A stretch of 64,000 nt of DNA. It comes from Candidatus Olsenella pullistercoris. Lineage in GTDB: Bacteria; Actinomycetota; Coriobacteriia; Coriobacteriales; Atopobiaceae. The stretch spans positions 1 through 64,000 of the forward strand of contig DXBM01000050.1 of NCBI GenBank assembly GCA_019116525.1, read 5' to 3'. The translations under genes and the position numbers were made by a program. The notes beneath the pieces were generated by a model. The model had not been told where the DNA came from, did no database searches, and worked only from the letters and a program-made list of their open reading frames with translations. Positions 29,330 to 43,110 of this stretch are shown piece by piece (the stretch's first letter is position 1; each line of letters begins with the position of its first letter).

Positions 29330-31921
29330 CTAGTCGTCCACGAAGCCCGCGCGGTAGGACGAGAAGACCACGGCGCCCTCGTCCTGCGTGGCGTCGAGGT
29401 CCACGTCGCCCCAGATGCCAAAGTCCCGGTCGTCGTCGGAGTCGCGGAAGACCTGATGGACGTGCCAGACGTGCGCGGACTTCTCGTCGGTCTCGTCAAT
29501 CGAGAAGTACGCGGCGCTCCGGGCGTCCGCGTCGAGGAGAATCTCCTCGTGCTCCTCGTGGAAGCGCTCGAGCGCCCGCCTCCACGCCGCCTCGCGCCAG
29601 CCCCACTCGGCGTCGAGCCTCCCCAGCTCGTCCGCCGCCCCGTGCGCGGCGAGCCGCACGCGCGCGAAGAGGGCGTTGCGTACGAGCAGCGTGAGCGCCC
29701 TGCGGTCGCGAACGACCTCGTCGGCGGCGGGCGGCGCGGCGTCGAGGCCCGCCCCCTCGCCCTCTCCGGCGGCCGCCCACTCGTCCACGAGCGAGGAGTC
29801 CACCGTGCGCACAACGAGCCCGAGCCACGCGACGATGTCGGAGAGCCGCTCGTCTCGCTTGTCGGGCGGGACGGTGCGGTCGAGGGCGCGGTACGCCTCG
29901 GAGAGGTAGCGCAAAAGCAGCCCCTCCGAGCGTGCGATGTTGTAGCGGCCCACGTACTCCTTGAAGTCGCTCGCCGTCTCCACCATGTCGCGCAGGATGG
30001 ACTTTGGCGAGAGGGCAAAGTCGCGCGCCCACGGGACCCGCTCGCAGTACGTGGCGAAGGCGGCGTCGAGCAGCTCCTCGAGCGGCTTGGGGTAGGTGAC
30101 CTCAGCAAGGCGCTCCATGCGCTCGTCGTACTCCACGCCCTCGGCCTTCATCTCGGCCATCGCCCGGTCGCGAGCGGCGCGCTGCTGCGCGCGCAGGATC
30201 TGCCACGGGTCCTCGAGCGTTGCCTCTGCCATGGAGATGACGTCGAGCGCGTAGGTCTCGGACTCGGGGTCCAAGAGCTCGAGCGCGGCGAGAAGGAACG
30301 GCGAGAGCGGCTGGTCGAGCGCAAAGTCGTCGGGCAGGTCAACGGTGGTGCGCCAGGACACCTCCCCGTCCGGGCCCTCCTCGCGCACGACCACGCCGGC
30401 GTCCATGAGGGTGGCGAAGATCTCGTCCGCGCGCGCCGAGAGGGCCGCCTTCTCCTCGGGCGGCTGGGCCGAGTCCTCCACGAGCCCGTGCACGCGCGCC
30501 CAGGCGTCGCCGCCCTGCTCGACCTCGGCGAGCACCATCGAGTGCGTGACCTTCATGCGCGGGCGCAGCGGCTCGGGCGTGGCGCCGATCAGGCGCTCGA
30601 AGGTCTGCTTGTTCCAGCCCACGAACCCCTCGGGCGGCTTCTTCGTCTTCGCCTTGCGCGCCTTCTTGGGGTCGCCGCCCGCCTTGCGCAGGGCCCGGGC
30701 GTTCTCGATGTCGTACTCGGTCGCCTCGGCGATGACGTGCCCCTCGGTGTCAAAGCCCGCGCGGCCGGCTCGGCCGGCAATCTGGTGGAACTCGCGGGCG
30801 TTCAGGTGGCGCATCCGCCGTCCGTCGAACTTGGAGAGCGCTGTGAGCACCACCGTGTGGATCGGCACGTTGATGCCCACGCCGAGCGTGTCCGTGCCGC
30901 AGATGACCGGGAGGAGCCCCTGCTGGGCGAGCTTCTCCACGAGCAGCCGGTAGCGCGGGAGCATGCCGGCGTGGTGCACGCCCACGCCACAGCCGAGCAG
31001 GCGCTGGAGCGTCTTGCCAAAGGTGGTGGTGAAGCGCGTGCCCTTGATCGCCTCCTTGATCGCCTCGCGCTGCTCCTTGGTGGAGACGCCATAGCTGGCC
31101 AGGCTCTGCGCGCTTGCGAGCGCCGCGTCCTGCGCGAAGTGCACGATGTAGAGGGGCGCCTCGCCTGCGCGCAGCGCGAGCTCGACGGTGCCCTCGAGCG
31201 CCGTGTCAACGAACTCATAGGAGAGCGGCACGGGGCGCGGGGCGTCGGCGACCGTGTCAACGGTGCGCCCCCCGGTGTGCTCGGAGAGGGAGGCGGCGAT
31301 GGCGCTCGTGTCCCCGAGCGTGGCGCTCATGAGCAAGAACTGGACGTTCGGCAGGGTGAGCAGGGGCACCTGCCAGGCCCAGCCCCGGTCGGGGTCGGCG
31401 TAGAAATGGAACTCGTCCATCGCGACGCAGCCCACGTCGCACGCCGCCCCCTCGCGCAGGGCCTGGTTGGCCAGGATCTCCGCGGTGCAGCAGATGATGG
31501 GGGCGCTCGCGTTGATGGAGGCGTCGCCGGTGATCATCCCCACGTTCTCGCGGCCGAAGAGCTCCACGAGGTCAAAGAACTTCTCGCTCACCAGGGCCTT
31601 GATGGGTGCGGTGTAGTAGGCGCGGCGGTCCGTGCAGACGCTCATGAAGCACATGCCCAGGGCCACCATGGACTTGCCCGAGCCCGTTGGCGTGCCCAGG
31701 ATCAGGTGGTTTCCCGCCGCGAGGCTGAGCAGGGCCTCCTCTTGGTGGGGCCAGAGCTCGATGCCGCGCGAGTCGGCCCAGCCGAGGAAGAGGTCGAGCG
31801 CCTCGTCCGCGCCGATGTTGGGGTAGGTCTCGTCGTCGGGCCAGGGGATGAGCCTCCCCAGCGAGCCGGGGCCGTTCTCTCCCTCGTCAACGGGGGTTGC
31901 CATCTGCGACGTCTCTGCCAC
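29330..31921 (-). CDS. DEAD/DEAH box RNA helicase with DUF3516-like C-terminal region
   Basis: GTPTGSGKSMVALGMCF, MDEFHFYADPDRG, CGTDTLGVGINVPIHTVVLTALSKFDG, HQIAGRAGRAGFDTEG; GTG start with aaaggagg RBS. Confidence 0.9.
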   Translation of the reverse strand: MAETSQMATPVDEGENGPGSLGRLIPWPDDETYPNIGADEALDLFLGWADSRGIELWPHQEEALLSLAAGNHLILGTPTGSGKSMVALGMCFMSVCTDRRAYYTAPIKALVSEKFFDLVELFGRENVGMITGDASINASAPIICCTAEILANQALREGAACDVGCVAMDEFHFYADPDRGWAWQVPLLTLPNVQFLLMSATLGDTSAIAASLSEHTGGRTVDTVADAPRPVPLSYEFVDTALEGTVELALRAGEAPLYIVHFAQDAALASAQSLASYGVSTKEQREAIKEAIKGTRFTTTFGKTLQRLLGCGVGVHHAGMLPRYRLLVEKLAQQGLLPVICGTDTLGVGINVPIHTVVLTALSKFDGRRMRHLNAREFHQIAGRAGRAGFDTEGHVIAEATEYDIENARALRKAGGDPKKARKAKTKKPPEGFVGWNKQTFERLIGATPEPLRPRMKVTHSMVLAEVEQGGDAWARVHGLVEDSAQPPEEKAALSARADEIFATLMDAGVVVREEGPDGEVSWRTTVDLPDDFALDQPLSPFLLAALELLDPESETYALDVISMAEATLEDPWQILRAQQRAARDRAMAEMKAEGVEYDERMERLAEVTYPKPLEELLDAAFATYCERVPWARDFALSPKSILRDMVETASDFKEYVGRYNIARSEGLLLRYLSEAYRALDRTVPPDKRDERLSDIVAWLGLVVRTVDSSLVDEWAAAGEGEGAGLDAAPPAADEVVRDRRALTLLVRNALFARVRLAAHGAADELGRLDAEWGWREAAWRRALERFHEEHEEILLDADARSAAYFSIDETDEKSAHVWHVHQVFRDSDDDRDFGIWGDVDLDATQDEGAVVFSSYRAGFVDD

Positions 31922-32000
31922 GCGTCCTCCTTTCGAGCACCCCATTCTATCGCGGCGTGACTATACTCAGCACAGAGACGCTCCGACGGAAAGGGGACGC

Positions 32001-32544
32001 ATGACCGACTTCCTTGAGCTCGCGCGCAGCCGCTACTCCTGCCGCTCCTTCTCGCAGCCGCTACTCCTGCCGCTCCTTCTCAGAGAGGCCCGTGGAGGCC
32101 GAGAAGCTCGACGCGCTCGTTGAGGCGGCCGTCGCCGCCCCGACCGCGGTCGACCGACAGCCGTGGCACCTGTGGGTCGTTGAGAGCTCCGATGCCGTGG
32201 CGCGCCTCTCCGCCCTCACGCGCTTCGGCTTTGGCGCGCGCGTGATCCTCGTGCTGGGCGCCCGCGCGGACGAGGCGTGGGTTCGCAAGTACGACGGCCG
32301 CAACTTCGCCGACGTGGACGCATCCATCGTGGGGACGCACATCATGCTCGCGGCGCACGACCTGGGCCTCGGCACCACGTGGGTGGGCCACTTCGACGCC
32401 CCGGCGGTGCAGGAGGCGTTTCCCGAGACCGCTGGCTACGACCTCGTGGCCCTCTTCCCCCTGGGGTACCCCGCCGAGGGCGACGAGCCCTCGCCGCGCC
32501 ACTTCGAGCGCAAGGGCGTCGAAGAGCTGGTCACGCGCGTCTAG
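32001..32544 (+). pseudogene. Nitroreductase family protein, reading frame interrupted by a 28-bp tandem duplication
   Basis: MTDFLELARSRYSCRSFS is in frame 1; SERPVEAEKLDALVEAAVAAPTAVDRQPWHLWVV... continues in another frame; duplication 32026-32053 = 32054-32081. Confidence 0.85.
32026..32081. repeat. 28-bp perfect tandem direct duplication
   Basis: gcagccgctactcctgccgctccttctc twice, back to back. Confidence 0.97.
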
Positions 32545-43002: not shown

Positions 43003-43110
43003 TGTCCCACTTGCCCCACGTGCCCCACTTGTACCAGGTACAAATGGTGCAACACGGTGTCGCCCCACTTGTACCTGGTACAAGTGGGGCATGTGGGGCA
43101 TGTGGGGCAA
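43003..43110. repeat. Family C palindromic repeat (C2)
   Basis: tgccccacttgtaccaggtacaaatggtgcaacacggtgtcgccccacttgtacctggtacaagtggggcatgtggggcatgtggggca. Confidence 0.9.

What the first reader, a model, noticed from the sequence alone, without database searches (positions are those of the whole stretch)
32026..32081. 28-bp perfect tandem duplication frameshifts a nitroreductase gene
gcagccgctactcctgccgctccttctc occurs twice in tandem. With one copy the gene reads MTDFLELARSRYSCRSFSERPVEAEKLDALVEAAV, a normal nitroreductase start. With two copies (28 bp = +1 frame) translation from the ATG at 32001 stops by 32123, and the rest is open only from a TTG without a clear RBS. A long perfect tandem repeat can contract by slippage, so this may be a reversible on/off switch. 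Nitroreductase loss is an established route to nitroimidazole/nitrofuran resistance in several bacteria, which makes selection plausible.
Basis: partly seen in the sequence, partly recalled or inferred. Interest (0 to 1): 0.75.

Follow-up and report, generated by a model that had tools for sequence, protein, structure and literature searches.

The report
Duplicated stretch breaks a nitroreductase gene
In one gut-type bacterium's draft genome a nitroreductase gene carries an exact 28-base repeat that throws its reading frame off; this looks like an ordinary, recent (and potentially reversible) loss of a dispensable gene that two sister species have also broken in other ways, not an evolved switch.

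Summary
In detail: GCAGCCGCTACTCCTGCCGCTCCTTCTC stands twice, head to tail and identical, at 32026-32053 and 32054-32081, near the start of a PF00881 nitroreductase gene. The frame from ATG 32001 ends at 32123. All 27 orthologues found in other species of the genus (Thermophilibacter/Olsenella group) carry one copy. It is the only perfect tandem duplication of 20 bp or more in 410 kb of this genome sampled, and no other gene break was found among about 52 genes comparable with an isolate, so a generally error-prone assembly is unlikely; reads were not available. The downstream frame has not decayed (ordinary dN/dS, no private change at invariant positions), so the duplication is young, or the gene is still used. 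Two sister species carry different breaks in the same gene (nonsense at codon 6; frameshift near codon 102), two or three more lack it, and three neighbouring control genes are never broken. I conclude: a recent loss-of-function allele of a recurrently lost, dispensable gene. Contraction could restore it, as with any perfect tandem repeat, but nothing shows a switch: the repeat is not conserved and no copy-number variation was seen. The link to nitroimidazole resistance is untested. Interest low.

The parts
32001..32123 (+). Frame from the original ATG start: 40 codons, then TGA (32121-32123), caused by the duplication
   Evidence: ATG with Shine-Dalgarno-like GGAAAGGGGA upstream, -8.1 kcal/mol; all intact orthologues start at the corresponding ATG
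32026..32053 (+). First copy of the 28-bp unit GCAGCCGCTACTCCTGCCGCTCCTTCTC
32054..32081 (+). Second, identical copy, directly adjacent
   Evidence: 1 bp of microhomology at the junction
32014..32544 (+). Open nitroreductase frame from TTG 32014 (176 aa, PF00881); contains the complete conserved RSRYSCRSFSERP segment but a foreign N-terminus
32092..32544 (+). Same frame from the in-frame GTG 32092; would lack the N-terminal conserved segment

Best explanation
A recent, spontaneous 28-bp tandem duplication inactivated a dispensable nitroreductase-family gene in the population from which this draft genome was assembled. Ribosomes starting at the normal ATG run into the second copy out of phase and stop after 40 codons (shown in sequence; loss of protein is inferred). 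The gene is one that this genus loses repeatedly: sister species carry a nonsense codon or a frameshift in it, and others lack it. Because the two copies are perfect and adjacent, replication slippage could delete one copy and restore the gene at some rate (inferred from general knowledge of tandem repeats), but this is a by-product of the kind of mutation and not an evolved switch.
For: Exact duplication and frame break. Single copy in all 27 other-species genus orthologues, so the two-copy state is derived. Only perfect tandem duplication of 20 bp or more in 410,565 bp of this genome; none in 477,022 bp of related loci. About 52 genes (about 20,000 aa) on the same 182-kb contig compared with an isolate of a sister species: three candidate breaks, all lying upstream of the true start codons and so false; no other real break. 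Independent breaks in the same gene: G017/L011 (CAG to TAG at codon 6) and G016/L003 (frameshift near codon 102), with intact nearest relatives; no specific orthologue in G014 and G026, both at least 94% complete, nor in G011, 76% complete. Control genes in the same genomes (DEAD-box helicase 871 aa, asnS 467 aa, polysaccharide deacetylase 449 aa) show only contig-end splits, no internal breaks. No decay downstream: dN/dS to the nearest relatives 0.12-0.19, zero private changes at invariant columns, so the break is young.
Against: No reads, no second strain of the species, no expression data. TTG 32014 could give a protein that keeps the conserved N-terminal segment, so loss of function is inferred. 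The absence of decay is also what a still-used gene or an assembly error would show. The two other broken alleles are in metagenome-assembled genomes and this genome too is fragmentary (81.5% complete, 72 contigs), where consensus errors are commoner. Junction microhomology is only 1 bp, so simple slippage between pre-existing short repeats does not explain how the duplication arose.
Confidence: 0.62

Rival explanations
1. Assembly artefact: two contig ends overlapping by 28 bp were joined without merging, so the organism really has one copy and an intact gene.
For: The genome is fragmentary (72 contigs, 81.5% complete). The junction has almost no microhomology (1 bp), as a blunt mis-join would. 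Every orthologue in other species is single-copy, and the frame shows no decay.
Against: No other perfect tandem duplication of 20 bp or more in 410 kb of the same assembly and no other gene break among about 52 comparable genes on this contig, so the assembly has no general tendency to this. A 56-bp array fits within one short read, which assemblers usually resolve (general knowledge).
Confidence: 0.17
2. The gene is still functional: translation starts at TTG 32014 (13 nt downstream of the ATG), giving a 176-aa protein with an altered N-terminus MSSRAAATPAAPS followed by the intact RSRYSCRSFSERP segment and the whole domain.
For: Frame completely open; PF00881 94.4 bits, match starting at residue 14; no decay in the frame.
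Against: TTG 32014 has no Shine-Dalgarno pairing beyond the random median, and the strong site upstream serves the ATG in the other frame. No relative uses this start; a young null allele would show no decay either.
Confidence: 0.12
3. Evolved reversible on/off switch (phase-variable or contingency locus) that toggles the nitroreductase by gain and loss of one 28-bp unit, kept by fluctuating exposure to nitro-compounds.
For: Perfect, adjacent, frame-shifting (28 = 3n+1) repeat near the 5' end; no downstream decay; repeated inactivation of the gene in the genus. Reversible frame-breaking tandem duplications that give unstable drug resistance are described in fission yeast (Dan et al. 2021, as described in PMC13207564).
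Against: Repeat not conserved in any of 27 other-species orthologues; two copies only; the other breaks in the genus are a nonsense change and a frameshift, not repeat changes of this unit; no within-species variation seen; junction microhomology is 1 bp, so the one-copy state has no special tendency to re-duplicate at the same place.
Confidence: 0.06

Closest known systems
Spontaneous loss-of-function mutations in nitroreductase genes (e.g. nfsB of Neisseria gonorrhoeae, PMC2788575)
   Same: A nitroreductase gene inactivated by a small frame-shifting insertion or a nonsense change; CAG to TAG is among the changes found there, and G017 here shows the same kind of codon change.
   Different: There, mutants were selected in the laboratory and no multi-base insertion came from duplication of native sequence (largest insertion 7 bp). 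Here no selection is known and the gene does not reach the NfsB-type equivalog cut-off.
Reversible microhomology-mediated tandem duplications (fission yeast ssp1; Dan et al. 2021, as described in PMC13207564)
   Same: Short tandem duplication inside a coding region that shifts the frame and can in principle be lost again.
   Different: Those form between microhomology pairs; here only 1 bp is shared at the junction, reversion has not been seen, and the organism is a bacterium.
Phase-variable contingency loci with intragenic repeats
   Same: Repeat near the 5' end whose unit length is not a multiple of three.
   Different: Two copies only, not conserved, no length variants observed.

Membership tests
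PF00881 nitroreductase family | Profile match above the curated cut-off | tested here: met
   94.4 bits against cut-off 23.5; closest solved chain 3h4o_A, E 5.3e-28
Oxygen-insensitive (NfsA/NfsB-type) nitroreductase | Match above the NCBIfam equivalog cut-off | tested here: not met
   NF008275 35.2 bits against 227; NF008033 27.8 against 223
Tandem-duplication loss-of-function allele | Two identical adjacent copies; one copy in the relatives; reading frame broken | tested here: met
Tandem-duplication loss-of-function allele | No functional protein made | not testable with these tools
   needs expression test; TTG 32014 remains a weak alternative start
Microhomology-mediated tandem duplication | Several bases of microhomology at the duplication boundaries | tested here: not met
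   1 bp only
Phase-variable contingency locus | Repeat-number variation within the species or a repeat conserved among relatives | tested here: inconclusive
   Not conserved in 27 other species; no second strain of this species available
Phase-variable contingency locus | Reversible switching in a clonal population | not testable with these tools
   needs reads or culture
Degenerating pseudogene | Relaxed constraint and further lesions downstream | tested here: not met
   no further stops or frameshifts; ordinary dN/dS; 0 private changes at invariant columns

The most novel reading that the evidence does not exclude
The two-copy state is a common, quickly reversible OFF allele within this gut species, kept at intermediate frequency by fluctuating exposure to nitro-compounds, as one expression of repeated selection against this nitroreductase across the genus.
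Probability: 0.05. Interest if true: 0.55.

Novelty: new member of a known kind. Interest (0 to 1): 0.2.

Why it matters
As a single allele it matters little: a dispensable gene broken by a small duplication. The broader pattern has some value. Three different breaks in 28 genus orthologues, two or three absences, and no breaks in three control genes suggest that this nitroreductase is repeatedly lost in these gut actinobacteria; whether the losses track nitro-compound exposure in host animals is a testable question.

Tried and rejected
Other gene breaks on the contig: an automated comparison with a sister isolate flagged three genes; on inspection each 'break' lay upstream of the true start, rejected. 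An earlier version of that comparison was spoiled by antisense shadow frames in this GC-rich DNA and was redone with a codon-position GC filter. A hairpin explanation of how the duplication formed: DNA folding of 32000-32110 is no better than shuffled sequence (z 0.63). Papers on nitroreductase tandem duplications with reversion, nitrofurantoin or rdxA: none held. Four flagged distant orthologues (L054, L057, L059, L097) were not examined further. No structure prediction was run: the family is clear from sequence and a fold would not decide between the explanations.

Full report
OBSERVATION. The 28-bp unit GCAGCCGCTACTCCTGCCGCTCCTTCTC stands at 32026-32053 and again at 32054-32081 with no difference. 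The tandem-repeat program reports 32025-32081, which is the two copies plus one shared C, so the duplication boundaries share one base of microhomology. No third copy exists in the window within three mismatches. From ATG 32001, which has a Shine-Dalgarno-like GGAAAGGGGA (-8.1 kcal/mol), translation runs 40 codons to TGA at 32121-32123. The nitroreductase frame is open from TTG 32014 to 32544; that TTG has no upstream pairing beyond the random median.

IS IT UNUSUAL? In 410,565 bp of this genome that I sampled, it is the only perfect tandem duplication with a unit of 20 bp or more; the next longest are 18- and 17-bp units, and an order-3 Markov null gives none above 10 bp. In 477,022 bp of related loci there is none of 20 bp or more.

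WHERE IT IS. The window is part of a 182-kb contig of a draft genome of 1.88 Mb in 72 contigs, 81.5% complete and 0.42% contaminated. Its genus is that of Thermophilibacter gallinarum, T. provencensis and many 'Olsenella' gut isolates. The gene sits between a divergent DEAD-box/DUF3516 helicase gene and a polysaccharide deacetylase gene, followed by pyrE and asnS.

WHAT THE GENE IS. PF00881, 94.4 bits. It does not reach the cut-off of any NCBIfam equivalog, including the oxygen-insensitive nitroreductases NF008275 and NF008033, BluB and others. The nearest solved structure by sequence is a nitroreductase-family protein without a stated function, 3h4o/3koq. Three other PF00881 genes remain in this genome. 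So a role in activating nitro-drugs is possible but not shown.

ANCESTRAL STATE. All 27 orthologues found in other species of the genus have one copy of the segment; 25 of them are intact proteins of 171-173 residues. The two-copy state is therefore derived. The orthologue of G017 (L011/L031) has TAG at codon 6 while its close relative L010 reads CAG, and the orthologue of G016 (L003/L098) has a frameshift near codon 102 while its close relative L005 is intact. G011, G014 and G026 have only distant nitroreductases; G011 is 76% complete, the other two at least 94%.

CONTROLS. The helicase, asnS and the deacetylase in the same genomes show no internal break, only splits at contig ends. Roughly, 3 breaks in about 4,800 nitroreductase codons against none in about 50,000 control codons; leaving out the break that led me here, 2 against 0, about 0.7% under equal break rates (my arithmetic). 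This argues against breaks being uniform assembly errors, but cannot tell dispensability from selection, because the control genes may be more strongly needed. On the contig itself, about 52 genes comparable to a sister isolate showed no true break.

AGE. Downstream of the duplication the frame shows no decay: dN/dS against the eight nearest relatives 0.12-0.19, overall mid-range for the genus, and no private change at positions invariant in the others. A young null allele, a still-used gene, and an assembly error all predict this.

MECHANISM. Best reading: a recent spontaneous tandem duplication that nulls a dispensable gene. Shown: duplication, derived state, frame break, repeated breaks in the genus. 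Inferred: loss of protein, recency, revertibility. Deletion between tandem repeats by RecA-independent template switching is well described in E. coli for 101-bp repeats (PMC8378479); for 28 bp a lower rate is expected (general knowledge). Reversible frame-shifting tandem duplications causing unstable drug resistance are described in fission yeast and form at microhomology pairs (PMC13207564); the near absence of microhomology here means that re-duplication at the same place would not be favoured, which speaks against a two-way switch. In a gonococcal nfsB mutant spectrum, no multi-base insertion was a duplication (PMC2788575), so this lesion type is not typical of nitroreductase inactivation in that system.

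VERDICT. Observation confirmed; loss-of-function reading likely; switch and drug-selection readings unsupported though not excluded. Raw reads and a second strain would settle most of what is open.

Noticed in passing
L011 (G017:C6, about 91187) and L031: The orthologous nitroreductase of a sister species has a TAG stop at codon 6, the rest of the frame intact.
   Followed up: partly
L003 (G016:C118, about 4780) and L098: The orthologous nitroreductase of another sister species has a frameshift near codon 102.
   Followed up: partly
window 31042-31066; also L031, L033, L035, L047: A perfect 12-bp tandem repeat (CCTTGATCGCCT, in frame) inside the helicase gene is kept, with small changes, in several sister species.
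   Followed up: no
window 43084-43109: A 9-bp unit GTGGGGCAT repeated 2.9 times, about 170 bp upstream of the apparent start of a ROK-type sugar kinase gene.
   Followed up: no
L153 13460-13499 (G000:C12:33460-33499): A 17-bp unit repeated 2.35 times perfectly, unit length not a multiple of three; whether it lies in a gene was not checked.
   Followed up: no
window 34966: The asnS frame starts with TTG behind a good ribosome-binding site (-8.7 kcal/mol).
   Followed up: no
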